Shown here: in pieces, positions 875-20,127 of the stretch
Position numbering within the stretch: the stretch's first letter is position 1
Layout of the letters: every line of letters begins with the position of its first letter
From: Ophryocystis elektroscirrha
Lineage: Eukaryota; Apicomplexa; Conoidasida; Neogregarinorida; Ophryocystidae
Direction of reading: 5' to 3'
DNA length: 20,127 nucleotides
Assembly (NCBI GenBank): GCA_030141585.1
Contig: JAQIFP010000009.1
Location: forward strand, 123-20,249
Program-made: the position numbers and the translations under genes
Notes under the pieces: generated by a model
Databases searched by the model: none
The model's input: only the letters and a program-made list of their open reading frames with translations
What the model was told of the DNA's origin: nothing

Positions 875-1480
875 TTACTCTAACTTATACTGTTTAAGTA
901 CAGGAACAATAATTTCTTTTAATTTGTCGCGTATTCTTTCTTCAGCTTCTAAAAAAAAGAAAAAAAAATAAAAAAAAGTAAAAAAAATTACCTTCAACAC
1001 AATAAGTAATTTCCCTTTTATGGATAGAGAATAAATATGTATTAGTTGAATTTATAATAACATTTGCTGGAGAAGGAAGTTCGTGTAAAAACTCATCAGA
1101 AAAGATTAGAGAACCTTTTTTCGCTATACAATCTCCGGTCTAATATAACAATAATATTTCTCAGAAATACCTCATTAGTAATCAAAACATCTCCATCATA
1201 AATCACGTACAAGTAATTTAAAGGGTCTCCCTATAATTTTTTTTTTTTTTTTTTTTTACTTTTTTAAATAATACAAGATCTTTTTCGTAAAGTGAAAGCA
1301 CAAAAGGCTTTGTTAAATTACAAGTTTCCTCAAAAGTTAAGACCGTTGAAGTTAAATTGCGGTATAAGAAATATGCTAGCTGTAGTTTAGAAGTATTCAA
1401 AGAATTTAGATTTGTAAGATTTTGATGGACACTGGAAGGGGTTACGAAATTATCTTTTTTTAAATTGGATTCTTTTAAAT
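875..1480 (-). other. cNMP-binding-like domain, C terminus of the coiled-coil protein
   Basis: Spread over four exons separated by introns of 29, 31 and 43 nt. Once spliced, residues 959-993 read FVLSLYEKDLVLFKK followed by GDPLNYLYVIYDGDVLI, which matches the family's kGDxxxxLYVIxxGxV core. A phosphate-cassette equivalent follows (about 1006-1020). Aligned without gaps to FGELALIYGTPRAA of protein kinase A regulatory subunits, the glycine is Ser, the ligand-binding Glu is Asp (1008) and the phosphate-binding Arg is Pro (1017). A final helix and a short charged tail end at the TAA at 875-877. Known of the family: loss of that Arg abolishes or greatly weakens cAMP/cGMP binding. Inferred: this domain is structural, or binds something else. 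Confidence 0.78.
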
Positions 1481-4400
1481 CTTCAAAGCAATGTAAAAAA
1501 AAAAAAAAAAAATTACCTGGAAGGCTTAAAGAAACTGAATCTGTGAAGTCCATGTTACTTAGTTCATTTTTATCGTCAATACTTGTTTTAGTTGCATCTT
1601 TATTAACATCGTAATCTTCCATTCCAAATCTAGGAGAGGCTTCTAATGCAAAATGTGTTGGAGTTTTATTGCTTTCAATTCCTTTAATCAGTAAAGCATC
1701 TTTCTTATTATTCTTATGTTTCTTTTTTGTAGGGAGCATAGATATTGCTCTCTGTATTTTTGATTTTTTGTATTCTTCTTTTTCTTTTTTGTTAGTTTTT
1801 TCTTTTTCTTTAGTTCTTTCTTTTTTTTTTAATATTTCTTTTTCCTTAGACTTTTCCTTATCTTTAGGTTTTTTTGTTGAAAATATTCCTAGCATACTTT
1901 TCTTTTTTTTTAGTTCAACGTTGCCTGGGTTATTATAGTCGTTATTTGACTTGATAGAATGAGTTTCACTAACTAGAATGCTATCATCAGATCCCTTATA
2001 GGGGACGCCTATGACTCTTATTGCGGGTAACTCTTCTTTTGAAATATTTAGAGACGCTACATCAGACTCCGAATTGATTTGGGCTCTATCACACTTTATA
2101 GGATGTTTTGTTTCTAGTTGCAACTCCTTTTTATTTTTTTTTGGAATAATTGCATTCTTAAGGTAAGAATAGACGTTTTTACTTTTTTTCTTTTCCTCCT
2201 TAGCGTCTTCTCTTGAACCTATGATAATTATATAACTTGGAATTCGTGCTAGTTACTTATTATTATATAATTACATATAGTAATAAGTAATGTTATTTGT
2301 AAGTGTTCTATGAAGTTTCTAAAAACCTTATTTGTATCTAAATAGTAATATTTTCATAAAAAAAAAAAAAAAAAATTACACTTATAGTAGGAATATATAT
2401 ATATATATATACTTGTAAAGCTTTATGTGTATCTTTATAATAATTTATATTTTTAAATAATATATTTATCTCGTTATTGTTAATACGGCAATATATATTA
2501 ACAATATATTAATATATATGTCCAAATATATATTTGACGAACTGTGTATATACTATAATATGAATAAAAAAAAAAAAAAAACTTATTGCGTAAATTATTA
2601 AATTTAGATTAATTAATAAAAAAACTTACAGACTGAAGCTGTTGAAGCAGAATAGTTTTGCCTCTCTAAAGTTGCATCTTTTGAATAAAGAGTTCTTGAA
2701 CTTTGAACATTTGAAGAGTTTGTTTTGATTTCTGCTGAACTTTCTTGCGCACTTAAAGCCTCTGGAATTTTTTTTAAATCCATTAATCTGGTTAATGAAG
2801 AGCTTTTCAAAGATGGAGAAAAAGCAATATTCGACTCAGTTTCTTTATCTTGACTCGACATAACTTTATCTTCGATCGACTTTTTATGATTTGCTTTGAA
2901 GGGCTTCACTATAAATCGAGCGAATTCCTCCACTTCAAAAACTAACTTTTTTTTTTCAGTTTGTAATACGGACAATATTTCACAAGCATCTTTATAATTA
3001 TTTTTTAAGGCATTATATGCTTCATTTATTACATCGTATTCTGAATTTGCTTTATCAAGGTTTTTATATTTTTTTATGCTGTTTTCGTACATTTCCGTTA
3101 GAGCCTAACTTTATCATTTAATCAAACATTCAAGCAATACTCTTTATAAAAATGTTTATTAACGTATACACACATTTATTTGTTCAAATTAAAACAAAAA
3201 AAAAAAAAAAAAAAATATATACATACATATGTATATATACATTAATAGTATATAGTTACACTATTATAAGCATCAACAAATCTATAACAATTTAAATATC
3301 TATAACTATAAGTGCATATACATGTATGCAAGTGTTAGCAAGATATCATTTAGAAAGTCTACATATAACTCTTACAAATACTTTTTATAAAAAGTTATAA
3401 AAAAAAAAAAGAGATGATATTGTGCCATGTTATAACAATTTAATAATTAATTTTGAACCCCATTATTTTTATACATATTTACCTTTACTTTCGACTGCAG
3501 ATTATTATATTTGTTTTTAATAGACTTTTCACGACTTTCAAGCTCAGATTCCCTTTCTTTTACTGATTTAGATAATGTTTGCAGTTTTGTTTTCAGCTTA
3601 GGTGTTTCTTTTCTGTAAACGTCGGTTTTCTAAAAAAAAAAAAAAAAAAAAAAGTTACCTCAAACTCAGAAATTTTTTTTTTTAAATTTATACATTTGTC
3701 AATAATATCGTCTAATTGATTAGTGGTAAGAGAATCAGACGGGATATTCGATGGCAGCAATTTGTGATCAATAACGCATTCTTCTCTAAGATATACGTAT
3801 ATATATATAATATATATATATATATATGCAAGAGTTTATAATGAAGTTTTTAATTGTATATGTAAAGCTGCGTATTAATTACAAATGGTGCTTAGCAATA
3901 ACGCTATGCTTTGATAATATAATACTAAAATTTAACTTAAAAAAAACCATCTATATGTTCGATATATATATACATGTACAAATAATATATTGATATAAAC
4001 ATTATATAAGAAATTATTTACATATTATTGACAACGTAGTTATATATTTTGCGTATTTAATTATTTCTCATCATGTCCACATTCGCTCTAATAGACATGT
4101 ATATAAGTGTATACATTTATTTGTTTACTTTTATAGTTTTTTTTTTATTTGCAAGATGTACTTATTGATATATAGAGTATAGATTATGAAATATAAAGTA
4201 TGCAAATTGATATTAGATACACAATTATATATACAAATATATATACACATACATATACACATATATATAGACATATATAGACACATATATATGCACATAC
4301 ATATATACACATACATATACACATATATATATACACACATATATGTATGTATGCATATAAAAAAATATATAAATATTTGAAAAAATGTAGTTAAATGTAG

Positions 4401-7400
4401 ATATATGTATGTGTATATATTGATATATATGTATATATAAATAATTATATATACATAAATATTTTGATATATTTATATGTTTTTATATAAATTTAGTGAA
4501 TATATATATATAATATAATCTAGTGATGGATATGCTGAAATATTATATAATATTCTAATAAAGTGTATTTTTAAACGATTACTTTGGAGGTACTTTCAAG
4601 ATAACCAATCTGTCGTATTCCTTAACTAATTTTTCATATTTCTTTGTAATATCTTCGAGCTTTTGTTTAAGATGAAAATTTTGATGATGTTCTGGATAAG
4701 TTAATTTTTCTGTAAATGCATTGTTCATTGATTTATCAAATTTCTTAAGAGCATTTTTTTGTATTTCTAAAAGCCTCGAATCCCCTAAAAAAAAAAAAAG
4801 GTTTTTTTTTTCCGACACAAATTGACGTGATAAACGTACATAAGCGAGCCAATCGGCGATTCACTTCAGTTATGTAATAATCAATTTTATTTTTTACTAA
4901 CTAGAGCACTATAAAACTTCAATATCCTCACGTTTTCTAATGTAGATTTTTCATTTATTAGACGCTGTTTTGATTGAATATCCATCCACTGCCAACGAGC
5001 AGAGTCAGATAACCATCTACTCATGTAGATTATTAAAGCGTTATTTGTGTAATTTAATGAATAAATATTGAAATACATAAATACAGTACATAGTTCGAAA
5101 ATAAAAACTAATATATACTGTACTATCGATATTAGTTTGACAGCTGTTAATAAGAATGCAACAATAATAATATTATAATATAATATAACTTCATATATTG
5201 ACTATAAAATGATATAACAATATAATATAAATTATAATATAACTATATATTTAATATAACTATACATATAACATAACCATATATATAATATAACTATATA
5301 TAAAATATAAGCATATATCTAATATAACTATATATATAATATATAACTATATATATAATATAAATATGTATATAATATAACTATATATAAAATATAATTA
5401 AGTCTATCACTAATTCATAAGACGATATGATTGAATTATACTGCCAGCTGTATACAGTATAATACAATAATATTGACATATATGTATTAATATATATCAT
5501 CATTTTTTAATAACTTTTAGTTTAAATATACTTGATAAGCTAACTTTATATTATTTCAACCACAATGAATGTATAAATCTGGCAATATGACATATATATG
5601 TCTTAAAAATAATGATTAGTTTTTGTATATATTCAGTCGTATATGTACGAGAAAAATGTCTTTGCACATGTATTTAATATTTTTGCGCTATTTTATATAT
5701 ATTTTATGTTTATATTTACATATGTATTCGTCTATAAATGTAAATATGTATGCATAAACTTATATCTATACATAACTATATATGTATACAATTATATATG
5801 TATATATAGATGTAATATACATACTAATGTATATGTATATATAAGTATATGTGTATATAATTATATATTTATATATAAATCTATACTTATACATAAATAT
5901 ATTTGTATGTATAGATGTATATGGATATGACTATATATGTATATATAAATATATATGTATATAACTATATATGTGTATATAAATATATATGTATATAATT
6001 ATATATGTATATATAAATATATATGTATACATATATATATGGATATTTTCACAGCGTAGATACAAGTTATATGCATATAATTATATTTATATATCTATAT
6101 GTTAATATGTCTATATTGATATACTCTAAGTGTATATATGTAATGAGTATAGATGCTTTATAAAGGCTAGTATATGTTTACTGATAAAAGTAAAATAATT
6201 ACTGTTGATAAAGATTACAAGAGCCCCAATGTCCGTCCAGAGCTGTTTCGAGACTCTCAAGTTCTTCTTTAGAACTTTGAAGAAGGAAACCAGATTCGCC
6301 TTCCATGTTTATGTATTTTTCATACGCAGGATCGATGCGACATTGTGGTATAGTTGCTACTTTAAACTTGGTCTCAAGAAATACAGGGAGTACAAAAGCA
6401 TCAGACTCTATTATTTTTTTGAAGCCAGTTTGAACAATTTCAAATAAATAAAGCTTTAAATTATCAACATCTTTTTTTAGATTAATCATTTTTGCTTGTA
6501 TAGCTTGAAGCTCTTTGGACTTAGATAAGTCTGTCTGTAATAATATTACACAATCAATTAATTTATAATATATATATATATATATGCAATTGCGCCTATA
6601 GTTTGCTATCTATTGAAGTGTCTGATTATGTATATAAATGTCGTTATATATATTCCTACGCGTATCATATATGCACACGTATATAAATGTGCATATATGA
6701 ACATGTATATCCAAATAATTACAATTCGGACTTTCTTAGATATATTGTTCCACTTATTCTAATTCTTCTATATTAACTATCGAATGCTTATAACTATTTT
6801 TACCCTTGTTTGCATTTCTTTCAACAAAGAATGCTCAAATTCAAGCTTATTTGGCTCTGACCAGCTCTTGTAAATGTTAATTTCGCTCTATAAATTCAAG
6901 AAAACTTACCATAAATTAATAACACTTATATGTTTATATTTATACATACGGTTAGTTTTATGACACAAACGCTTATATTTATAAAGTTATAATTTGTTAA
7001 TATATATATATATATATATATATATCTATAACCGTATAAAGTATATACTTACTTATATACACATTACATGCTAATAAATACTTAATAAAATAATAATATG
7101 ATACACGAATGTCTACATAAATATAAATGGCATTATATCACTTTTTTTTTATATAAATACTATTATAAGTATAAATCAAATATTTGTTGATATATATGAA
7201 TATATACAAGAAAAAGCACATAAACTGATATTAAGCATTATTTAAAATTATATAAATCCATAAATATTATATAATCATATTCTTATATAAAAATATCAGT
7301 GTAACTATATAGGAATAAGAAGATACGTATAATAATATGAAAACATCTAATACCCAAATGCATATATATGCATAAATTATACTCATTAATATATGCATAA

Positions 7401-8070
7401 ATATATTTTACATTAAAAATAATGTAACTGAAACTATATATATATAAATATGTATACATACATATATAAATATATATATATATATATATAATAAGTTATA
7501 ATAATAAGTTAGAGAGTTTTAAGTAGTTGTATGAGGTTATGAATATTTAAAACATATTGTATATGTACTGAGTAGTTAAAAGACCTGCTGAAGTTTTTCT
7601 AAACAATCTCTAGTAAGCTGCCTATCTGTTGTCGATAAAGAAATAGTTCGAAGTGCGTCTAAAATAACGGAAATGTTGAAAATTTCGTCTCTAAAATCTG
7701 CAGGTAAGCCTTTCCATATAGTTTCTGATGTAACCAAGAAGTTATTAAATGATTGACATGAATCAAAGATTCCATTTTGCGTATATTTTCGAGCAATCAA
7801 TTTAAAATTATATAGTAGCTCGTTTTCAAAATTATTTATAAATTCGGATAGTTTCGATTGATGATCAGAAAAATTTATATTTATTGGATTTTCTTTTTTT
7901 TTTTTTTCCCATTCATCTAAATTTTTTGTCATTAAATGATCACGTGTGGAAGATAGACAATCATGAGAATATATATCCTTATCACTTATAACTAAATGGT
8001 TGTTATTATGCATTGTCAAATTGGATATTGGTGATCTAAAATCTGAAAAATTATTTATTGTATTATTCAT
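875..8070 (-). CDS. Coiled-coil protein with C-terminal degenerate cyclic-nucleotide-binding fold (14 exons)
   Basis: Exons on the minus strand: 8070-7585, 6887-6804, 6534-6203, 5016-4898, 4863-4840, 4784-4583, 3785-3659, 3629-3483, 3104-2630, 2218-1517, 1480-1260, 1230-1171, 1139-992, 948-875. All introns are GT-AG and all phases agree, giving 3201 nt and 1066 residues. The N-terminal 160 residues (start ATG at 8070) are Asn/Ser-rich then helical. The middle (about 160-660) is mostly charged helix and coiled coil. A Lys/Glu-rich stretch covers about residues 710-770. The C terminus (about 930-1050) is a cNMP-binding fold. I do not recognise the whole protein. The fold suggests descent from a cyclic-nucleotide sensor; the coiled coil suggests a scaffold. 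Weak points: the first donor is GTCTTT, unlike the GTAA/GTAT/GTAC elsewhere, so exon 1 could instead end at the TAA at 7576. The acceptor of exon 4 may be 5019. Small exons inside the long introns cannot be excluded. Confidence 0.75.
1517..2218 (-). other. Highly charged Lys/Glu-rich exon of the cNMP-fold gene
   Basis: This 702-nt exon encodes about residues 666-899. A run of roughly 45 residues is almost only Lys and Glu with a few Ser and Thr (for example KEKSKEKEILKKKERTKEKE). It is followed by a basic KKKHKNNKK patch, then a Ser/Thr-rich linker. Such segments commonly form single alpha helices or bind acidic partners, but no specific role can be read from it. The exon starts in phase after a 411-nt intron and ends at a GTAA donor followed by 18 T. 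Confidence 0.75.
2219..2629 (-). other. 411-nt intron of the cNMP-fold gene
   Basis: Donor GTAAGTTTTT, acceptor ATCATAG. It contains two A/T homopolymers of about 17 nt and an AT dinucleotide tract near 2394-2411. A GTAATTTT...TTTAG pair inside (about 2335-2377) looks like another short intron, so an extra small exon is possible, but none has a convincing reading frame. Confidence 0.55.
3105..4582 (-). other. Introns of 378 and 797 nt around two coiled-coil exons, with CA/TA microsatellite
   Basis: Coiled-coil exons at 3483-3629 and 3659-3785, separated by a 29-nt poly-T intron, sit between introns 3105-3482 and 3786-4582. The 797-nt intron holds a TA/CA microsatellite (about 4205-4345, units such as ACATATATATAC). 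This produces spurious Tyr/Ile/Cys-rich frames on both strands. I see no gene in it. Confidence 0.7.
4840..4863 (-). other. 24-nt microexon
   Basis: A tiny exon between a 34-nt intron (4864-4897) and a 55-nt intron (4785-4839). It supplies the last two bases of one codon, seven codons (NRRLARL) and the first base of a Trp codon. Including it joins the flanking exons in one frame. It keeps a basic/hydrophobic helical pattern with both neighbours. Confidence 0.65.
5017..6202 (-). other. 1186-nt intron made largely of TATATGTA-type microsatellites
   Basis: The longest intron in the window (donor GTAATTATTT, acceptor GAGTAG or CATGAG three bases earlier). About 5160-5400 repeats ATATAACTATATAT-like units. 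About 5640-6060 repeats TATATGTATATA-like units. Open frames here encode only Tyr/Ile/Cys-rich low-complexity peptide and are not genes. Confidence 0.65.
6535..7584 (-). other. Introns of 269 and 697 nt flanking an 84-nt exon
   Basis: Exon 6804-6887 (28 codons, phase 0 at both ends) encodes helical sequence including SEINIYKSWSEPNKLEFEHS. The 697-nt intron (6888-7584) holds AT dinucleotide tracts near 6997-7024 and 7464-7491. A GTAAG at about 6905-6909 would give a 22-nt intron, but the sequence before it has an in-frame stop, so I prefer the long intron. Confidence 0.55.
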
Positions 8071-8905
8071 ACATTGTTTTTTTTTTTTTTATGTTTAATA
8101 ATGCCTTAAACCATAGCATAATAGTTTTCGACTTCTTTTTTTTTTTTTAATTATTTTGAATGGTTGTTACAAAATAAAAAAGGTAAAGTCTATTATTGAA
8201 TAAGTTTATCACTGATATTTGTGGGAGTATTTCCTTTGAATTTAGCTGAATTGTAAATTTTACAATAATACTGCACATAATTGATATTAATATTTATGTA
8301 CATTATTCTTGATATGTGGGGCTTAATCTTTTTTTTTTTATAGATACATTACTTTATGACAAGTATAAATAATCCTCTTATTTTTTTTTTAGGATACTAT
8401 TTAATATGTTTTATAGTTATTTTTGAAAACATTATAAAACATATTACTACTATTTATAATAATATGTATAATATTTATTATTATATATATATGTATAATA
8501 TATATTATAATATATATATGTATAATATATGTTATAATATATATTAACATAATTATATATAATATATATAATATATAATATTTTATTTATGTATAATATA
8601 TATAATATACACTATTATATATATGTATAGTATATATAATATTATATTATAACAACACATCTAATAAATCATTACTAAATATATATTATCAAATAAAGAT
8701 GCATAAGAAGTATAATTAATGTATACAAAACTTTATTCTGATTATTATTCTATAAGGGTTCATATTATTAATTTTGATAAGACATTAAGTTATATGTATA
8801 CTTAATGCATTTTGTTAGCTTAATTATTGTCAAGTAACGGCGTAAATAGCATTAAAATAGTGAAAGTAGTTAAATAGCAAAATATAGACTTTAAATTACC
8901 CTTTT
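8071..8905. promoter_or_regulatory. AT-rich intergenic region upstream of the cNMP-fold gene
   Basis: It lies between the 5' end of the minus-strand gene at 8070 and the 3' end of the myosin gene at 8906. It should hold the promoter of the former and the polyadenylation region of the latter. It contains poly-T runs (8079-8090, 8137-8148, 8331-8339), and about 8440-8650 is a tract of units like TATATATGTATAATATAT. No defined promoter motif or gene is seen. Confidence 0.55.
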
Positions 8906-9665
8906 TTAAAAATATGTCAAGAGTGTTCTTGCGGTATTGACAACAGAAAATATATCGTCTGTCGTTAAACCCGTAATCGGTGTATCTTTTTCTAGTCGTT
9001 CAAAATCGTCAATATCCAAATATTCATCTTTTTGTTGAATTACTGGTTTTTCCTCAACCGTTCTTTTTGGTATTGTTTCATTGATATTTGGTTTTGGAGC
9101 AGAAGTGTTTCGAGAGAAATATAACGCCTTGCGATCAATTTTTTTTATTGAAGACCTTTTATCTGTTTCCCGTTTATATGTCGCATATTTTTGAGGTTGT
9201 GAAACGTTTATTATTCTTTGCTGGTATGGAGTGAATTCAAGAAAACTCTTGGCGTCACCTTCAGAAACTTTCTGTTTTGTTTTAATTATTTCATCTTCTA
9301 ATTTTCTGCAGGTTGCTTTGACAGACTCCAAAGTAATATTATCATTATAAGATGACATTATTTGCATTGGACATATCATACGAGAACTGAAAGAAAAAAA
9401 AAAAAAAAAAAGTATATTTTTATAATTTAAATATTAAGACTTACGAGCATTTTTTATAAGCAAATAAATTGGCTTCTAAATAATATATTCCATTAACAAC
9501 TTCATATTGCTGTTTTGCTTCTTTATCTCTGCTCAAATTTATATAAGTAAAAGAGGTTTACATATTAAATCGGACTTTTGGTTTAGCTGTTGTTTCTGTA
9601 GGCTTATGAATCCATTTTATGGCTACCTCATCAAATGAATGTATTATGTGTCTTGAGTTTAATAC
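8906..9665 (-). other. C-terminal tail of the myosin, family unknown
   Basis: Three exons (9665-9562, 9528-9445, 9386-8906) encode about 222 residues after the last RCC1 strand. The first part (SRHIIHSFDEVAIKWIHKP) may close the propeller. A helical segment follows (EAKQQYEVVNGIYYLEANLF and LESVKATCRKLEDEIIKTKQ), then a charged linker rich in Lys, Pro and Glu, and an acidic EYLDIDDFERLEKDTP segment before the TAA at 8906-8908. I recognise no domain. Confidence 0.7.
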
Positions 9666-12376
9666 CTAAGTTTATTGAAAACAACGATTTGTGATTTGTG
9701 TAATAATATACAATAATTTAGTAATATAATAATGTAATAATTTAATAATATAATAATACATTAATATAATATTGCAATAATATAATATAGTAATACAATA
9801 ATATTATAATACAATAATATAATAATACAATAATATAATATTATAATAATATAATAATAGAATATTATAATAATATAATAATATAATAATAGAATATTAT
9901 AATAATATAATAATATAATAATATAATCATATAATAATATAATAATATAATAATATAATAATATAATAATATAATAATATTATAATATAATAATATAATA
10001 ATATAATAATATAATAATATAATAATATAATAATATAATAATATAATAATTTAATAATATAATAAAGTAATAATATATTACTATATTAATATAATAATAT
10101 AATGGTATATATATATATATATATATATATTACTTTGCACAAACTAATTACTATGTATATAGATACTCAAGTAAGATATGATTATTTAGCAACATTAATT
10201 AACATAAAGCACAATTTGAAGCTATAATAATAACAATTTTTTAAACTTACAGAAACGTGTGGTTCTAATCCACAAGAAATGTCTAAGAACTCATGTTCTC
10301 GTTTCCAAAGAGGATGGATTATAGCTGTGGGAACAGGTATAATTTTCTTGACTTTTTGAGCTATTTTAGGAGTTTTTTGAGTGTTTTTGAACTCTAATGC
10401 AGACTTCATGAAACCTCTGTATTTTTCGTATATTTTCTCTACAGAGGGAGGCTGGTTATTTTGTATTTCAACTATGTTAAATTTCCCCCATAAAAATATT
10501 CGACCATATGCAGGTTTTACTATAGCACAAACGTATTCCATTCCACAAGCAAGTTTTTCGATACGAAGCATAGTTTGTATGGCTTTTGGTATGTCTATAA
10601 TTCTAAGTGTTATTGGATGTTTAGACGGTTTAAAGTTAGTATTTACCCCCAATTGATTACATGAATTAATACCCCATACTAATGCCTCTATTTTAGTATT
10701 AGTTATAAGAACCATAGAAAATCTGTAACTGCAATAAATATCTCGTATAAGTTTTCCGTTGAAATCCAATTCTAATGGGCTGTGTATGTTTTCCGTAGAA
10801 TATTCAGATAAGCCTAGATGCACACTTGAACCCCATACGTAAACAATTCCATGATTACTTAATACCATATTTTGAAATTTACCCACACTAGCCCTAAAGT
10901 TAGTATACATAATGAAACATTATAATAATTAATCAATTAATTATTATTTATTAATTGTAATGAAATAATATATATAGACAGTAAAGATTATTGAACTGCA
11001 TACACGTGAAAAATGTATTAAAATTATAATGAGAGGTTATTTAATTTAGTATATTAAAATAATAGTACACTATAAATCATATTATAAAAAAACTTAATTT
11101 TTATTCAACATTTCAAAAATATATTTAATTTGCTATCTAATTATAATATTCCAAATAAATTCTAGTTGTATATATTACTTTGCTCTATGAATGAATTTTA
11201 TCTTCATATTTAAAACAAAATCTTATTATATACTTTTCACTAATATTAATATTATTATTACAATTATTACTGTTATATTATTATTTATATTATTGTTATA
11301 ATTATTATTATAATTATAATAATATTATAAATAATAATTTAATTATTATAATTTATATTATTATTGTTATAACTATTAGTATTATTATTAATTTTATTAT
11401 TATTATTATTATTACTTATATTATTACTAATATAATTAGTATTAATTTTATTATAATTAGTATTATTATCATTAATATCATTTTTTTTTTTTAATTTATA
11501 GAATTACTGATATATAATATTACTTTTGAATAAACTTTGATTGAAGCTGCTCTACTAGTTGAGGTTTAGTAATCATTAAAGAACTATAAAGAATTAAGTT
11601 TTTTTTTTTTTGATCAAGTACTTGTAAACTTGAGCACATTGACCGTAGCGATTATCACCCCAAGCGAAAACTAATCCACTTTCTGATAAAGCAAGGCAGT
11701 GAAAGTTTCCTGTATATACAGAGCTAATTCTATTCTTTAAATTAGGCTGGCTGTAGAAACTTAATGGGACAAAAAAAGTATTTATAGGATTTTCGTTTGA
11801 GTGATATCTTCCTAGCTGTCCATAATTATTAAGTCCCCATGTATATATATTATTATTCCATTCAATATTAGAGTTAACTGATTCAGGTTCCTTTAGCATA
11901 ATTAGAGAAAAATTAGAGCCAACAAGAATAGTCTCTATTTTGAACAATAAAGGAAATATAGTGAAAATTTCTGAAGCCAAATAATCGTATTCATCTATGT
12001 AATGATCCTCCAATTGTCTATTTGTTAAAAGAGCTTTTATATCTTCTAAAAGGGGTTTGAAGTAGCTGATATTTAGAGTATAGAAAATTAAACTAGCCTT
12101 TCTTGCTTTTTCTAATAATAACCGATATAACTTATATGACCATCCTTGATAATAATTACTTAAGCACAAGGGTTTCGCCTAAAAGTTTTGTATGGATTAT
12201 TGTATACCTTTATGTTTAATATCAAAAGAGATTGTTCTTTAGGATTCAATTGAAATCCCTGGTATAACTGGGAGGGTACCCACAAGTTTTTAAACAAAAT
12301 CTTTTCTCGGTTTATAACGATGTTTTTCGTATTCTGAAACAATTATATACATGTATATAAATCGTATTAAATATTT

Positions 12377-12417
<41 letters not shown>

Positions 12418-15400
12418 TTATATAATTATATGAGTATTTATTGATCCATAGTATCAAATTATGACGTTAACGACACATTCTGTTACTTCATATTCTAAAA
12501 ACTGAATATTTACATATAGTTAAACGCAGTCATACAGCCATATAAATGTAACAACTGAAATTATAAGTAAAAAAAAAAAATTATATATACAAAATAATAA
12601 TTTTATTAATATTTATTGAATATAGATATAGATATATATTATATATATTAATAAAAATACAAATATAAATGTATTTTGCTTTATTAATTCAAAAATATTT
12701 GGGCAACATTTTAAAGTATAATTTTATAATATAATATTATAATATAATTTTATAGTATAATTTTTTTAGTATAATTTAATACTATAGTAATAAATTATGA
12801 ATATTTATGTAAAAATACCTCATCTAAAACATTGTATTGACGCCGAATAACAAGTGATTTAATTTGGTATTTCTTAAGTGACATATAAGCTTTCCACCAA
12901 CGCTGTATTTTAATTGTCTGTTTCATAAGAATGTAGAATTTAGTCTATATTTAAATAATTTGAAGACATAAATTACTCTGTAAAGAACGGTAAGGGCTAC
13001 AGCTTGACAGTTCATTACGGCTATTTTCAGTCTTTTATATTGAGTCCTTATACGGTAACTTTTCCACACTTTTTGTATATATATAGCAGCTTTGGATATT
13101 TTGAGTTCATTACTAAAATTAATTAATACAAGTATATATTACTCATGCTTAGTACGCATTTGTTTTTGTCTTTTTAAAAGAACCCGCATGTGCAATCTTG
13201 CTTGTAATGTTAATAATCTTCCAGCTATTCGTTTAATTGGGTTAACAGCAATTTTAAGCATTTGAATTTCGCGATATCGCCTTCTTACAAGCCATCCTCG
13301 CACATTTTTCTGTATAATTATGACAACTTCCTCTATCAAGCGTTTGCTAGTAGCTGCATTTGTGACGTGGACTTGAGCTATATATCTTCGGCATACCATA
13401 GTCAAAAGTCTGCCAGTAATTAATTTGCATCTTTCTATTTGAAGAGATACAGCTTTTTTTATTGCAAGTTCTTTTCTCCACCATGCTTGTATGAATATTA
13501 CAGCAGATTCAATGTAATTCTCTCGAATTTGAGTATTAAATCTAATGAAATATTATAAACTTGTACAGTAAGAATACTTGATATCTGATTCTAGCAAATA
13601 ATGACCGATTTCGTCTAAAGACCTCACTTTGTATGCAACAAATAAACATTTTGTTATAGCTAAAGCAGAAATGTGTTTTCTTAGAACTGTAAATTCACGG
13701 TTAACTTTGATTCGTCTTAATTCACTCTGTAAAGCGATTATGCCTGTTCTGTATTTATATAAGTTATATGTTGGTTTGAAGCGTTTACAAAAATTTTGAA
13801 TTTTAATAAGACTGGGAATAACTTTTGTATGGTAATCTAGCAATCTGAAATATTCAAGATTAATTATGTTACTTTAACTAACAGTATTACGTTAATTTTT
13901 ATTATAAAATTAAATACATAATTTACAAACAACATATTCAAAAAAGTTTTCTTATATATATATATGCATATCAATTAAAATAATAACAATGGTAAATAAT
14001 AATTATTCATATAATAACAATTATAATAATAGTAATACTAATAATAACAATTACAGAAATAACAATGATATTAATTATAAGAATAATAATAATTATAATA
14101 AAAATAAGAATAATATAAATAGTACTAATAACAATAATTATACTAATAATACTTATACTTTTAATAATTTTAATATTTATTGCAATAGTTATTGCTATAT
14201 CAATAGTAACTATGTGTATATATTTATATTCAATTGTGTATGAATAATTATGGATATACATATATATATATATATATATACATTTTTATATAATTATATA
14301 TAACTAAATATAAGTAAACTTATTTGTTTCTTATTCTTATTATCGTTTTTATATTGACTTACATATATACACTGATACATAAATAAATTTATTTTTGTTA
14401 TTAAATATTTATTTAAAAAAAAAAGTATCTATATCTATCAAAAACATTACAATTTATACACTAAATTTATTTTATAAAAAAAATGTTTGTATATTTACTA
14501 AGCTAAGAATGATATTACCAAATTATGAGTGAACGTTAATATGTGAGTAATATTGATTAATATATAATTTCTTCACAAATAAATTAATTACTTGTCTTCA
14601 AGCTTCAAATATGTGTCTAAGTTAAGATATATCTTGTCTAGAAGGATTTTGATCTTATTAGCGTCTATTTTGACAATTTGAAAGATTTTTTTAATAATAA
14701 ATGGAAGTTCAAAAGTTGCGCACGGAGGTTTACTGTCACGCCGAAAGTTGTATAGCGGTTTATAGCGCTCATAAAATTCTTCATTTGTATAAATGACAGG
14801 ATAGCTTTCGTTAATAATATGATATATAACCTGACAAATAATAGTTTGAATATATATTTACATCAAGATAGTGCTGACTTAATACCCTAAATAAATCATA
14901 ATTTAATTTATTTTCTTGAGGTTTAAATGGATAGATAAAACACATACACAAAAATTGATGCTCGTGAATTTGTAAATGCCGATTAAACTCATTTATGGCT
15001 GTCCAAAATAACAGTATGGGTGAAACCCGCTTTGAATAATATTTGAGGATGTATTTTACATCAAAGCGATTCAAAATATCAAATAAAAGTGGAGGACAAT
15101 CCAGAAAATTGTTATCTTGAAAAAAATTGTTATTGAAAGAATAAATTCGCTTGAAGTTGTTTGCGGAGTAATTTATGTGTATATTGCAATTTGAATCAAC
15201 GACAGTATATTTATTATCTTTGCATTTAAGTTTTAAAAGCTGATATTCGGTATCAAATGAATCGTTGTTTCTGGATGTTGGTATTTTTTTTGATATATCT
15301 TCTATATGGAATAAAAGACTATTATTCTCATTAAATAATTCAGTTCGATACTTATCTGCATCAGCCATTATTAAGTTGTATTTTTTTTCTAGTATATTAG

Positions 15401-16463
15401 GAGGAGAATTTTGCATACGGAATACTGCACGGTAGTAATTTATGCATTCCATTTGAGAAATGTAATGACCGTATAAGTTTTGGAGTAACTGGTCTATATA
15501 TCTACAGTCTTCCTGATATGTGGGAACTTCTATAAGTTTCAAGACTTTAAACTCATTGTACACAGATGACACAGTATTTTGTTTTGTAAAGTATTCATTT
15601 ACTCTTTCTAAGAATACTCTAAGTATGTTGAAGTACAAATAGACAGCGAAATCCATAAATACGTTGATGTTTCTTCTAGCAAGAAACTCTAATACATCTC
15701 TTTCGTCTAGAATATTTAGTGCATAAGCTAACTGCAAACAAATATGTTCTTTTATAGTTATTACCATATAAAAAACGTCTTCATCCCCCATATCTTTATT
15801 AAGAGCTTCAAAACTTTCATTTTTATGTGATATATATATAACAACTGTTTTTAATATACATATATACAAACTTCTTACTAGAAAAAATAACAACAGTCAA
15901 AGTTCGATATAAATCAATTATGAAGCTGTTTGATAACTGAAAACTTCTTAATTCTGAAAACTGTTTTAGTGTTTTAGAAACTTATTGTGTGAGTTAAGTA
16001 TGAAATATATAAAGTTTTGCGTTATGTGTGCTAAATTTTCGTAATATTTTGGCAAAAAGTATATTTAATTAATATGCAGCTATATATATATTTATTATAT
16101 CATATTATATTATATTTTAAAATATTATATTATATCATATTATACTATATTATATTATATTATATTGTGTTATATTATTGTTAATGTATAACATTATAAA
16201 TATGATTATTTAGAGTCATATTACAAGTGTAACAATGTAAATTTTATTATATTTATTATTAACTGTTTTATAGTTAAGCACTTTATTGACTTCATTAAAG
16301 ATGTTTAATTGTATTCATTATACACTTTTAATATCTATATACATCAATATATTGCTTATAAAATTAACAGTGATCCTATTAAAGCAAATTACAATCATGT
16401 ATGTTAATTAATTATATATTTATCAATTTATTTTTAATTTAATTTGCACAAATAAGTTCACAG

Positions 16464-16515
<52 letters not shown>

Positions 16516-18260
16516 ATAAATTATAGAAACGAAGCTGTATTTAAAACACTGTTCCAAGCTTAATGTATGTGTCACTTGTGATAACTACAAACATAAAGCG
16601 TAAAGAAGCTACTTTTAAAGTTTCAATTATTATTGCTAGTATTATTGTATGAAGATATATAAAGAAACTTACTAAGACATTGTTCATTGAATTGCTAGAA
16701 TCCAATGATGGTAAGAATGGAATTAGTTTCTTCATATTTTCTAACGGCATAGACTCAAATATATGAGGAACTATGTCGTCAATATAATACAACAGTTGGT
16801 GAAGTATCAGAGGAAGACTCACAGATACAGTATTCCGAAAAGGCAACCTAATACAAATAGTTCATTATAGCTGTAAAATCTTTACATTATTTTACAGTAT
16901 CTTATACATACATTATATAGTTATTTAAAATAAAAGAGAATTTATATGAATGTAATACTATACATTAATTGCAATATATGTTTCATATATATATATTTGT
17001 ATATATACAACAGCTACACTAAGTTTTGTAAAAGCATTGATATTGGATTTAGTAAACTATTTTTATCAAATCTTATTATTGCGCTTATTGAAGCTTACAG
17101 TGATATTAGATTCAAGGCTATTTGAAAATTTGATACGCTTTCTGATGAATTGCGGAAAGTAATTTCAAAAGAATAGTTGACGCACGAATGTATCACAGAA
17201 TTTATTTGAAACTATAAAAATCATTGAATATTACGAATATAACAAATATAATTATTTTGGCAATATAGGAGAATAATTAATATATAGAGTATAATAAATT
17301 ATACAATTAACCATAACTAATAATGTAATAATGTCTTTCAAATCTTATGTATAGTGTGGATATATTTACTATTACTTTGGAGAATAGATCTAGCATTTTT
17401 AGTGCAAGTTCAATACTTGAAAGAGGAGTTTGGTTATTTATGTTTGAAGTAATGGGCTGTGTACTATAGAGACGGTGAATTTTTTTAGATATCACTGGGA
17501 GATTATTAGATCCATGAAATATCATGACCTGTGTTTTAAAGTTACTAAGTTGCAATATTGAAGTGTTTAATAAGTCATGAATATGTTCGGTATCACTTTG
17601 AGTGTCGAAGAATTTGCAAAATTGGATTAATACAAATTTTCCAAGATAAATGTTATTTGTATTATCGTTTAAGTTACTCAATATTGTATTCAAAAAATCC
17701 ACTTCGACATTATTCAACTTTGCTTCATTTGATTCATTGATTTTATAGATATCTATAAATCAATAAAATAAGATTTTTCTTTACTTCAATTTAGGATAAA
17801 TATAGTTAATGTATTAAAATATAAAGCATTTAATTAATAATTTTTATGTTTTAATAATATGCAGCTTAATAAATCTATCACTTCTATGACATATATTTAT
17901 TTCCAATGTCAGCTAGCACAAATATAATCATTATATTTGAATAAAGAAAATTCATAAATTCATAACACTAATAAACAATGAAGTATTATATATATGGTTT
18001 ATATATATATATACAGGTGTACATATACAGGTTTATATATATATAGGTTTATATATGTACAAGTATATATATATACAGGTTTATATATATACAAGTTTAT
18101 ATATGTACAAGTATATATATATATATACAGGCTTATATATATATGCTTATATTTAGAGGCTTATATATAGAGGCTTATATTTAGAGGCTTATATATAGAG
18201 GCTTATATTTAGAGGTTTATATATATACAGGTTTAATATATAGAAGGTTATAAATATACA

Positions 18261-18300
<40 letters not shown>

Positions 18301-18794
18301 AATTTACGTATATACACGTTTATATATATATATATATATTTCATATATATATATATATATACATTAATTTACATGTAGATATATTATTATTGTAATTGAA
18401 TGATTTACAAGATATTATGACTGGTTTGTTTGGCTAAATTTAAGGGTATATGATATTATAATGCATTTCTATAAATTAAATTTTATTTATATAATTATAA
18501 ATATTTTAATTAATAAGGCTGGTTCATTGACTTACTCTCTAAATCACTTTTTTGGTCCTGATATGTGGAATTAGTGGGGGATTTCCTTTGACTTTCATAA
18601 GGACGAATATGGTTCATGGGGATAAGTAAAGCAGCGTCATATTTTATTTCATTTAAGTTGGAAGGAGTTTCAGAAACAACATCCACGACAGCGTAAGATA
18701 AATTGGTTGACCGAGTCCTTATTTTACCGAACAGCCAAGAATTTAATTTTGGCACCCATACCCATACAAAGTCTTTCGGTTTATTTTCATGCAT
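8906..18794 (-). CDS. Divergent MyoH-like myosin: SH3, degenerate motor, IQ neck, RCC1 tail (19 exons)
   Basis: Minus-strand exons: 18794-18536, 17752-17376, 17211-17099, 16847-16673, 15936-15879, 15844-15765, 15731-14862, 14830-14592, 13844-13578, 13541-13143, 13112-12977, 12917-12819, 12333-12208, 12178-11622, 11583-11524, 10893-10251, 9665-9562, 9528-9445, 9386-8906. All introns are GT-AG and phases match, giving 5127 nt and 1708 residues. An in-frame TGA lies upstream of the start ATG. Domains: SH3-like (about 9-70), motor (about 100-724), IQ neck (725-1024), RCC1 repeats (about 1170-1486), unique tail (1487-1708). Myosin landmarks occur in family order, but the P-loop is absent and both switches are degenerate. 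IQ plus RCC1/ATS1 is the architecture of Toxoplasma MyoH, a conoid-associated class XIV myosin; orthology is inferred. The least certain joins are exon 5 (15936-15879) and the acceptor at 9528 (9531 is equally in frame). Confidence 0.82.
9666..10250 (-). other. 585-nt intron with TAA/TAATA microsatellite
   Basis: Donor GTAAGTTTAA after a Val-Ser codon pair, acceptor AACTTAG. About 9715-10100 is an expanded ATAATAATATAAT-type tract followed by an AT dinucleotide run (10107-10130). It has no coding content. Confidence 0.75.
10251..12178 (-). other. RCC1 (ATS1-like) repeats of the myosin tail
   Basis: Three exons (12178-11622, 11583-11524, 10893-10251) form an RCC1 region. Recognisable blades are IYTWGLNNYGQLGRY, NFHCLALSESGLVFAWGDNR, ITKPQLVEQL followed by FQNMVLSNHGIVYVWGSS, ALVWGINSCNQLG, and MEYVCAIVKPAYGRIFLWG: five WG strands in all, fewer than the seven blades of a full RCC1 propeller. 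The degenerate sequence before them (residues about 1025-1170) may complete it. In MyoH the ATS1/RCC1 tail is linked to association with conoid microtubules; here that role is inferred from architecture alone. Confidence 0.85.
10894..11523 (-). other. 630-nt intron inside the RCC1 region
   Basis: Donor GTAATATTATATATC, acceptor AACTTTAG. About 11240-11480 is an ATT/ATTATT-rich tract. The exons on both sides join through a split Lys codon inside an RCC1 blade, which supports the intron boundaries. No gene is seen in it. Confidence 0.75.
12334..12818 (-). other. 485-nt intron between IQ neck and tail
   Basis: Donor GTATTTTTAC after a Glu codon, acceptor TTGTTTCAG, phase 0. It holds an AT dinucleotide run (12383-12408) and ATAATTTTATAATAT repeats (12710-12780). 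Nothing in it is coding. Confidence 0.75.
12819..13844 (-). other. Myosin neck with at least six IQ motifs
   Basis: Four exons follow the converter. IQ-type segments are SLIKIQNFCKRFKPTYNLYK, GIIALQSELRRIKVNREF, AVIFIQAWWRKELAIKK, VVIIIQKNVRGWLVRRRYRE (the best canonical IQxxxRGxxxR), LLTLQARLHMRVLLKR (weak), AAIYIQKVWKSYRIRTQYKR and TIKIQRWWKAYMSLKKYQ. IQ motifs bind calmodulin-like light chains and form the lever arm. The long neck is conserved although the motor looks inactive, so light-chain binding may still matter. The first neck exon joins the converter through a shared Lys codon (AA + A) across a 747-nt intron. Confidence 0.85.
13845..14591 (-). other. 747-nt intron between myosin converter and neck, with AAT/AAC repeat
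   Basis: Donor GTAATTAATT follows the Glu-Asp end of the converter. The acceptor ATATTTCAG precedes the first IQ exon, and the split codon gives Lys. About 13985-14180 is a degenerate ATAATAACAAT repeat. It creates an Asn/Tyr-only frame on plus and an Ile-only frame on minus; neither is a gene. An AT run lies at 14262-14280. Confidence 0.75.
14592..17211 (-). other. Myosin motor, middle and C-terminal parts (L50, relay, converter)
   Basis: Landmarks in order: FQINSVIHSCVNYSFEI (family ILHLGNIxF), LAYALNILDERDVLEFLARR (aaxLLgvdxxxLxxaLtxR), FAVYLYFNILRVFLERVNEY (AKALYexLFxWLVexIN), KLIEVPTY at the switch II position (family DIxGFE), DQLLQNLYGHYISQ in the relay helix, IHINYSANNFKRIY (IxHYAGxVxY), HEHQFLCMCFIYPFK (phfiRCIKPN), LSQHYLDVIYHI (QLrYxGVLexi), ESYPVIYTNEEFYERYKPL (aGYPxRxxfxeFxxRYxxL), and IKILLDKIYLNLDTYLKLED (TKVFLRxxxxxxLExxR). 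The SH1 Cys and the CIKPN Cys-Ile-Lys are altered. A roughly 100-residue insert of unknown origin lies between the HLGNI and LLG equivalents (exons 3-6). Confidence 0.8.
15937..16672 (-). other. 736-nt intron in the motor insert, with AT runs
   Basis: Donor GTAAGTTTCT after a Leu codon, acceptor TTTTCAG, phase 0. It holds a TATTATATTATA tract (16084-16170) and an AT dinucleotide run of about 45 bp (16466-16511). Minus-strand sequence at about 16540-16592, beginning LSQVTHTLSLEQC after a GTAG acceptor, could be another small exon, but no good donor follows it before the AT run. Confidence 0.55.
17376..18794 (-). other. Myosin N terminus: SH3-like domain joined to the switch I region
   Basis: Exon 1 (86 codons) reads DFVWVWVPKLNSWLFGKI and ends near LLIPMNHIRPYES. 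This resembles the small SH3-like barrel in front of many myosin motors. Exon 2 joins in phase and carries NTNNIYLGKFVLIQF (about 117-131), aligning with NxNSSRFGKFIxIxF of switch I. Then come LLNTSILQL (family YLLEKSRV) and VMIFHG (family HIFYQL). Only about 45 residues separate the SH3 from switch I. A normal myosin has well over 100 there, including the purine-binding loop and P-loop. The Ser-Ser-Arg of switch I is not kept. Confidence 0.72.
17753..18535 (-). repeat. 783-nt first myosin intron with 14-bp minisatellite
   Basis: Donor GTAAGTCAAT, acceptor ATTTATAG. About 17990-18365 is built from related units: AGGTTTATATATATAC-like, and at 18150-18220 a 14-bp unit GAGGCTTATATTTA alternating with GAGGCTTATATATA. 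AT dinucleotide runs lie at 18268-18296 and 18321-18363. No frame on the minus strand encodes a P-loop or other motor sequence. The intron sits exactly where those motor exons would be expected. Confidence 0.78.
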
Positions 18795-19212: not shown

Positions 19213-20127
19213 ATGCAGTATTTAAACAGAAAGAAGAAATGTTACATTTGCGATCATTTTGAGGAAATTAATCAATTAGTTTGTCACCCGCTTTGGAAAA
19301 ATGATTATATATGTAAAAAATGTGCGAGTAATATGAAACGTTGTATTACATGTGAAAGACCTCTTAATAGATCAGAGCATGAGTATTTATAATTGATATA
19401 ACGCTTAATTTAGAAATTTGGTTGTATCTAAGTCTCAAAATAGGGAAACATTTTATCAATGCGGAGTCTGTAAGAAAGCAGGTACATTTAAATTACTAAA
19501 TAGTGATTAATTAACCATATATTTAAATGACTTCAACATTGTAGAGGATTTTCTCTAAACCGTTCAATTTTATTTATTTATTAGAAATTTATTGAAATAC
19601 GTATAATTTTATTTGATAAATAAGTATTTTTAAATAAAATATTGTGTAATTTTGCAGGGTGGGTTAAAAGCGATTCAGATGTTTTAGCAATTGTGGACGA
19701 TGTAATTAATTATTATAAGTCTATAAATGTGGACATAGACAGAGTCTTTGAAGTCAAACATCAAAGAAATACAGTAAATAAAAGTAATATTCCTCAAGCC
19801 ATAATAAGTTTGATGTGTATGCACGATTTAAACTTAAAGTGCTCCTCTCCACAGTCCGACACTTGGAGTGAAAAATTGGTTTTTGGTAAATTTTTCACTA
19901 ATCCAAGTGGGGTTCAAATATTCATGTGCAAAAACCTTCAAGAAGACGTTTTTTTTATGAGTCTTGTTCACGAATTTTTGCACGCTTATCTCTATTTCCA
20001 AGGTGACATACCAAATTATTATAATATAATTGATATACATATAATTTTGTATAATTATTTTAAGTATATACTGTTATGCATATATATAGGTAATAATAAT
20101 AATAATAATAATATATATTATTTTATT
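19213..20127 (+). CDS. DA1-like zinc-module metallopeptidase, 3' end outside window
   Basis: Exons 19213-19382, 19414-19481 and 19658 to at least about 20001, joined in phase across introns of 31 and 176 nt. Start ATG at 19213 follows an in-frame TAG. Residues 10-76 form a cysteine-rich LIM-type zinc module: C10-C13, H25 in the CHPLW motif, C34-C37, C44-C47, C73-C76. It resembles the cysteine-rich segment before the peptidase in plant DA1 (CxxC...HPFW...C...CCSCE). Residues 80-195 lead to SLVHEFLHAYLYFQG, matching LAHEMMHAWLRLNG of DA1: the HExxH zinc-peptidase site (H184, E185, H188). Plant DA1 is a ubiquitin-activated peptidase limiting growth-promoting proteins. Here no ubiquitin-interacting motif or first LIM domain precedes the module, so activation may differ. 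At 20002 the reading may splice (GTGACA) or continue (GDIPNYYN); both are open. Confidence 0.82.
19969..19983 (+). other. HEFLH zinc-metallopeptidase motif
   Basis: Codons CAC GAA TTT TTG CAC give HEFLH, followed by Ala-Tyr, matching HExxHAW/HAY of the DA1 family. The two His should bind zinc and the Glu should activate water. The third zinc ligand, expected downstream, lies outside the window, so intactness cannot be judged. Confidence 0.85.
20002..20127 (+). other. Right edge: possible intron and AAT repeat
   Basis: From the GTGACATACC at 20002 the sequence turns AT-rich and ends in an ATAATAATAAT tract (20092-20115). A TATATAG at 20084-20090 could be an acceptor, but the sequence after it is simple repeat. 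The gene continues beyond the window. Confidence 0.5.

What the first reader, a model, noticed from the sequence alone, without database searches (positions are those of the whole stretch)
17376..18794. Motor without a P-loop: likely pseudo-myosin
Exon 1 (SH3-like) splices in phase to exon 2, which already carries the switch I region. The stretch that should hold the purine loop and GESGAGKT is missing: about 45 residues replace well over 100. No minus-strand frame in the 783-nt intron between them could supply it. A myosin with lever arm and cargo tail but no nucleotide site would act as a tether or scaffold, not as a motor. I know of no described MyoH of this kind.
Basis: partly seen in the sequence, partly recalled or inferred. 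Interest (0 to 1): 0.9.

Follow-up and report, generated by a model that had tools for sequence, protein, structure and literature searches.

The report
Dead-motor myosin of apical tip
An apicomplexan parasite carries an intact gene for a myosin whose motor head has lost its ATP-using parts; its nearest named relative, MyoL of Toxoplasma, has lost them too, so this 'motor' of the invasion tip is more likely a tether or strut than an engine.

Summary
The observation largely stands, but the gene is misnamed. Window 18794-8906 (minus strand) holds an intact predicted 16-exon gene, 1642 aa, with 15 GT-AG introns and no internal stop. Layout: SH3-like start, eroded myosin head, converter, IQ neck, RCC1 tail. 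No Walker A occurs in any of six frames of the window. LIEVPTY stands where switch II should be. The seven other myosin loci found in this genome all keep a Walker A. Intron 1 offers no single P-loop exon, though it holds a tandem array where an assembly could collapse.

The nearest named relative is MyoL, a preconoidal-ring myosin of Toxoplasma; MyoH could not be compared directly. Toxoplasma MyoL, its Neospora counterpart and one unnamed relative still match Pfam Myosin_head, yet none has a Walker A, switch I or switch II motif. So this looks like a conserved pseudomyosin family, eroded furthest here. A 2025 cryo-EM paper calls MyoL a motor and suggests an actin-translocation step. Sequence argues for a tether. 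Function was not tested, and a 2026 MyoL preprint could not be read.

The parts
18536..18794 (-). Exon 1: start codon and SH3-like segment (FVWVWVPKLNSWLFGKIR)
   Evidence: ORF and GT-AG splice; matches P0001 start, score 66, 0 of 300 shuffles reach it; does not match the TgMyoL segment tested, 169 of 300
17753..18535 (-). Intron 1 (783 nt, 18% GC) with a 16-nt tandem array at 18004-18330; no single P-loop exon
   Evidence: no Walker A in six frames
17376..17752 (-). Exon 2 of the eroded head
   Evidence: not confidently alignable
17619..17657 (-).
   Evidence: 1 of 1000 shuffles vs C65 switch-I zone, but 139 of 1000 vs C2b and 352 and 737 of 1000 vs the zones of P0001 and TgMyoL
17099..17211 (-).
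   Evidence: phase-matched GT-AG exon
16673..16847 (-). Exon 3 of the head
14862..15731 (-). Exon 4 of the head (290 aa)
   Evidence: residues 303-393 match the MyoL-family HMM; the 1-600 head piece scores 7.9 bits, best of 100 shuffles -2.7; residues 301-420 vs P0001 score 79, shuffle maximum 61
15516..15536 (-). LIEVPTY at the place of switch II (DIFGFE or DIAGFE in own-genome myosins)
14592..14830 (-). Exon 5: converter
   Evidence: YPVIYTNEEFYERY recalled as converter-like; colinear; residues 599-700 alone are weak (4 of 300 shuffles reach it)
13578..13844 (-). Exon 6: start of neck
13143..13541 (-). Exon 7: neck with IQ motifs
   Evidence: PF00612 E 7.4e-11
12977..13112 (-). Exon 8: neck, IQ-like IQKVWKSYRIR
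12819..12917 (-). Exon 9: neck
12208..12333 (-). Exon 10: linker
11622..12178 (-). Exon 11: RCC1 repeats
   Evidence: PF00415 E 1.1e-14
10251..10893 (-). Exon 12: RCC1 repeats
   Evidence: PF00415 E 6.4e-9
9562..9665 (-). Exon 13: end of RCC1 domain (by position)
9445..9528 (-). Exon 14
8906..9386 (-). Exon 15: C-terminal tail with DTPITGL (DTPLSGL in P0001), and stop

Best explanation
The gene encodes the MyoL of an unnamed apicomplexan. MyoL is an RCC1-tailed myosin with a light-chain-binding neck whose head has been kept as a structural domain after losing the nucleotide site. SHOWN by sequence: an intact predicted gene; MyoL-type neck and tail; no Walker A, switch I or switch II motif here or in Toxoplasma MyoL, its Neospora counterpart and one unnamed relative. 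INFERRED: the protein cannot run an ATPase cycle. It sits in the preconoidal ring at the apical tip, binds calmodulin-like light chains along its neck, and joins ring to conoid through head/neck at one end and the RCC1 tail at the other. It would work as a strut, possibly calcium-tuned, that transmits force made by other myosins.
For: Full protein vs a four-sequence MyoL-family HMM 364.7 bits. P0001 and the tail profile hit PDB 9ya0_NA, myosin L, at 8.6e-121 and 7.4e-167. TgMyoL as query gives the window contig as best place in the genome: 3 of 5 matches, the best one included. Family heads (TgMyoL, Neospora P0143, P0001, P0002) vs four own-genome myosins: hhalign probability 99.8, E 3.1e-30, 655 columns, pairing GELDAAQD (TgMyoL) with GESGAGKT and MASTGLD with LDIFGFE. 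P0001 has GPSGAGRA. Pattern scan: 0 of 5 family proteins have a Walker A, N-x-S-S-R type switch I or DxxGF switch II. 7 of 7 other own-genome myosin loci keep a Walker A. CDS has 0 internal stops in frame against 140 and 158 in the other frames. Published: TgMyoL lies at the outer rim of preconoidal ring P2 with CAM1, CAM4 and MLC4 as potential light chains on its neck, and its depletion blocks lytic growth (PMC12819142, passages and section 15). [quoted passage not shown]).
Against: Pfam Myosin_head does not match the window head, nor does any PDB sequence up to E 10. The head is joined to the myosin fold only through colinearity, the start, exon 4 and the converter zone. hhalign of the window head alone gave probability 2.0 vs the family and 1.2 vs own-genome myosins, scores 27.5 and 25.0 against shuffle maxima of 22.9 and 24.2 in 40. 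Longer alignments: z 0.15, 2.0 and 4.7 with three profiles, 30 shuffles each; anchored alignment z 1.0, 32 of 200 shuffles reach it. P0002 begins after the P-loop zone and has no Myosin_head match, so it says nothing on the P-loop. PMC12819142 calls MyoL a motor. No location, light chain or expression data exist here for this species.
Confidence: 0.66

Rival explanations
1. Assembly artefact: a P-loop exon was lost when the repeat in intron 1 collapsed, and the real protein is an active motor.
For: A 16-nt tandem array of about 22 copies lies in intron 1; a lost 1-1 phase exon would leave the frame intact.
Against: Switch II is lost in exon 4, far from the repeat; three relatives lack a Walker A too; the PF00063 search of the genome gave 33 matches, all at the seven other myosin loci, with no orphan motor exon among the candidates scored.
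Confidence: 0.08
2. The head lost ATP use but still binds actin, so the protein is an actin cross-linker or rigor-like clamp rather than a purely structural strut.
For: Three relatives keep the overall head; T. cruzi has a described pseudomyosin lacking the P-loop (PMC7300353, passages).
Against: No positive evidence: actin-binding surfaces were not tested, and exon 4 here is strongly diverged.
Confidence: 0.2
3. It is a MyoH whose head decayed in this lineage alone.
For: TgMyoH has the same order head-IQ-RCC1 (PMC4711953, passages); no other RCC1-tailed myosin was seen in this genome, among scored candidates.
Against: Neck and tail best match MyoL. TgMyoH was not among the 120 listed of 661 hits. 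Its absence says nothing, since TgMyoL was missed there too.
Confidence: 0.04
4. A decaying pseudogene.
For: The head is extremely diverged.
Against: 1642 codons with no stop, 15 canonical phase-matched introns, codon-position GC 0.39/0.29/0.27 against introns 0.16.
Confidence: 0.02

Closest known systems
Toxoplasma gondii MyoL (TGME49_291020, 2484 aa)
   Same: Neck and RCC1 tail colinear, same order of parts, no Walker A, switch I or switch II motif
   Different: Here the head is 85-88 residues shorter between exon 1 and exon 3 landmarks than in the relatives, no longer matches Pfam Myosin_head, and lacks the long N-terminal extension of TgMyoL. Pfam finds IQ motifs here but none at E 0.1 in TgMyoL
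Toxoplasma gondii MyoH (TGME49_243250, 1513 aa)
   Same: Head, IQ neck, RCC1/ATS1 tail; conoid-associated (PMC4711953, passages)
   Different: [quoted passage not shown] sequence not available here for comparison
Trypanosoma cruzi MyHd
   Same: Called a pseudomyosin because it lacks the P-loop (PMC7300353, passages)
   Different: Trypanosome orphan myosin of the cytopharynx; sequence not compared
Vik1/Cik1 kinesin partners and MYO18A (recalled, no call)
   Same: Motor-fold domains with little or no nucleotide activity used for binding
   Different: Unrelated or distantly related proteins; recalled only

Membership tests
MyoL family | Neck and RCC1 tail colinear with TgMyoL | tested here: met
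MyoL family | Myosin head recognised by Pfam | tested here: not met
   Met by TgMyoL, P0143 and P0001; not met by the window protein or P0002. I read this as divergence and rest membership on neck and tail
MyoL family | Place in preconoidal ring P2 | not testable with these tools
   Reported for T. gondii (PMC12819142)
MyoH | Closest to TgMyoH in neck and tail | tested here: inconclusive
   MyoL is the best named match; TgMyoH itself not retrieved
MyoH | Head with ATPase motifs (as described for TgMyoH) | tested here: not met
Active myosin motor | Walker A GESGAGKT | tested here: not met
   None in six frames; 7 of 7 other own-genome loci have one
Active myosin motor | Switch I N-x-x-S-S-R | tested here: not met
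   No such motif in the protein; which residues stand in its place is uncertain
Active myosin motor | Switch II DxxGFE | tested here: not met
   None in the protein; LIEVPTY at the aligned place
Pseudogene | Stops or broken splice sites | tested here: not met

The most novel reading that the evidence does not exclude
MyoL, an essential 'motor' of the apicomplexan invasion tip, is a conserved pseudomyosin: it never runs an ATP cycle, so the proposed MyoL-driven first step of actin transport at the preconoidal ring does not exist as such, and MyoL is instead a strut joining ring and conoid. In the present species selection has let even the core of the nucleotide-binding subdomain go.
Probability: 0.6. 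Interest if true: 0.8.

Novelty: new variant of a known kind. Interest (0 to 1): 0.62.

Why it matters
A current model of apical actin flow adds MyoL as a step before MyoH (PMC12819142, section 15). If the family has no nucleotide site, that step must be rethought and MyoL joins the few described pseudomyosins. It would also bear on why an older disruption within the MyoL head had no noticeable effect on fitness (PMC5477499, passages) while depletion of the protein blocked growth (PMC12819142), though the later authors suggest partial disruption. The head's need for ATP is directly testable.

Tried and rejected
Rejected or set low: the MyoH label; pseudogene; a single hidden P-loop exon in intron 1. 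My own reading that exon 2 holds a worn P-loop strand (FKTQVMIFHGSNN) and exon 2b a worn switch I was tried: the P-loop part was no better than shuffles (103 and 285 of 300), the exon 2b part had no separate test, and neither is claimed. A look-alike of the pre-P-loop stretch in exon 3 fell within shuffle range. Profile alignments of residues 86-335 and 86-288 gave no reliable placement. In one search one of three profiles gave a best score (81.1) just above its 12 shuffles (maximum 80.1), but it paired residues 89-228 with a later zone of the head, out of order with exon 4. P0073 (Theileria equi RCC1 protein) came up; its sequence was printed and by eye it shows RCC1 repeats and no myosin parts.

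Literature searches whose listings I looked through for a statement that MyoL lacks an ATP site, with passages read from the MyoL papers, showed none. The 2026 MyoL preprint is not held and may say so.

Full report
Gene. The window is part of contig C97 (124 kb) of an 8.0-Mb, 118-contig genome; window GC is 0.24. On the minus strand, open frames from 18794 to 8906 join at phase-matched GT-AG sites into 16 exons and 15 introns, coding 1642 aa. The coding frame has 0 internal stops against 140 and 158 in the other two frames; 200 shuffles averaged 128, lowest 103. Splice sites are predicted, not shown by transcripts.

What the protein is. Pfam finds IQ and RCC1 repeats but no myosin head. A first database search with the neck and tail gave two colinear relatives, P0001 (1973 aa) and P0002 (1721 aa), both without a name from their source; most of the other 110 hits cover only a minor part and look like RCC1 proteins. 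A second search, with a three-member tail profile, gave 3 hits, P0001 and two RCC1 proteins; it scored only the 7999 candidates sharing most words. Against the PDB, P0001 and the same profile found Toxoplasma MyoL (9ya0_NA) at E 8.6e-121 and 7.4e-167; the profile includes the window's own tail. A third database search listed P0138, a Toxoplasma protein of the same 2484 aa that I take as TgMyoL, and P0143, a Neospora hypothetical protein that I take as its counterpart, among the best 120 of 661 hits. The whole window protein scores 364.7 bits against an HMM of these four. TgMyoL searched against the genome gives 5 matches, 3 of them, the best included, on C97. TgMyoH was not among the hits listed and could not be compared directly.

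Is the head a myosin head? For three relatives, yes: TgMyoL, P0143 and P0001 pass the Pfam cut-off (96.1, 95.5 and 77.8 bits against 33.3); P0002 has no match. The four-member head profile (P0002 included) aligns with four own-genome myosins over 655 columns, E 3.1e-30. For the window protein the link is weaker. The start matches P0001 (0 of 300 shuffles) but not the TgMyoL segment tested (169 of 300); residues 301-420 match P0001 (0 of 300); residues 599-700 less well (4 of 300). The head alone scores 7.9 bits with the family HMM against -2.7 for the best of 100 shuffles. Against this, hhalign of the head alone is barely above shuffles, long alignments gave z 0.15, 2.0, 4.7 and 1.0, residues 86-288 could not be placed with confidence, and a PDB sequence search of the head found nothing.

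Catalytic motifs. No Walker A lies in any of six frames of the window. TgMyoL has GELDAAQD in the P-loop place and MASTGLD in the switch II place; P0143 has the same letters there; P0001 has GPSGAGRA and IYAPGFT. The window has LIEVPTY in the switch II place. In a pattern scan 0 of 5 proteins (window, P0001, P0002, P0138, P0143) have a Walker A, an N-x-S-S-R type switch I or a DxxGF switch II; P0002 starts after the P-loop zone, so its lack of a Walker A says nothing. hhalign places ISER of TgMyoL at switch I, so a Ser and an Arg may persist there. As a control, the seven other myosin loci found by PF00063 were scanned: 7 of 7 show a Walker A (six GESGxGK, one GGTGSGKT); 5 of 7 show DIxGFE; 2 of 7 matched my narrow switch I pattern, while 4 of 4 loci used as the comparison profile show NSSRFG. 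That scan was of single open frames, so motifs split by introns are missed.

The stretch before exon 4. Between aligned Asp residues near the end of exon 1 and in exon 3 the window has 219 residues, P0001 307, and TgMyoL and P0143 304 each. If right, the P-loop stretch is truly missing; if wrong, it may survive in worn form. In both cases no working nucleotide motif is seen. A 16-nt tandem array at 18004-18330 keeps an assembly collapse in intron 1 possible, but that would not explain the loss of switch II.

Mechanism. In T. gondii, MyoL is reported at the outer rim of preconoidal ring P2, with its motor domain and neck visualised, CAM1, CAM4 and MLC4 as potential light chains, and blocked lytic growth on depletion; the authors call it a myosin motor and suggest an added step in actin translocation (PMC12819142, passages and section 15 read). 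No mention of its nucleotide site appeared in the passages seen. An earlier paper called MyoL unclassified and found disruption within the head without noticeable effect (PMC5477499, passages). [quoted passage not shown]), seen only as a title. A table lists P. berghei gene 1435500 as the MyoL orthologue and none for MyoH (PMC7951837, passages); that gene is not among the six Plasmodium myosins given identifiers in PMC6851706 (passages). Together these fit a light-chain-bound strut between ring and conoid. That the present protein does this is inference.

Novelty. Pseudomyosins have a precedent (T. cruzi MyHd, PMC7300353, passages). I saw no held paper stating that MyoL lacks a nucleotide site, but most subscription papers and the key preprint are not held. 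The new points are the loss of motifs across the relatives compared and the extreme case in this window.

Noticed in passing
window 19213-20127 (+): Start of a plus-strand gene with a cysteine-rich, zinc-binding-like first exon and, further on, a HEFLHAY zinc-peptidase-like motif; resembles DA1-type proteins (recalled). Pfam gave only sub-threshold zinc-finger matches to the first stretch and none to the second.
   Followed up: partly
window 1218-8088 (-): Several long minus-strand open frames, some lysine-rich and coiled-coil-like by eye, perhaps one intron-rich gene; no Pfam family above cut-off in 5 frames tested.
   Followed up: partly
G000:C38:56183-58009 (+): A divergent myosin in one 1024-aa open frame with an unusual Walker A, GGTGSGKT.
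   Followed up: no
window 8906-18794: The gene's 15 introns fall in three sizes: 5 of 29-36 nt, 2 of 58-59 nt, 8 of 164-941 nt; several of the long ones are largely AT repeats.
   Followed up: no
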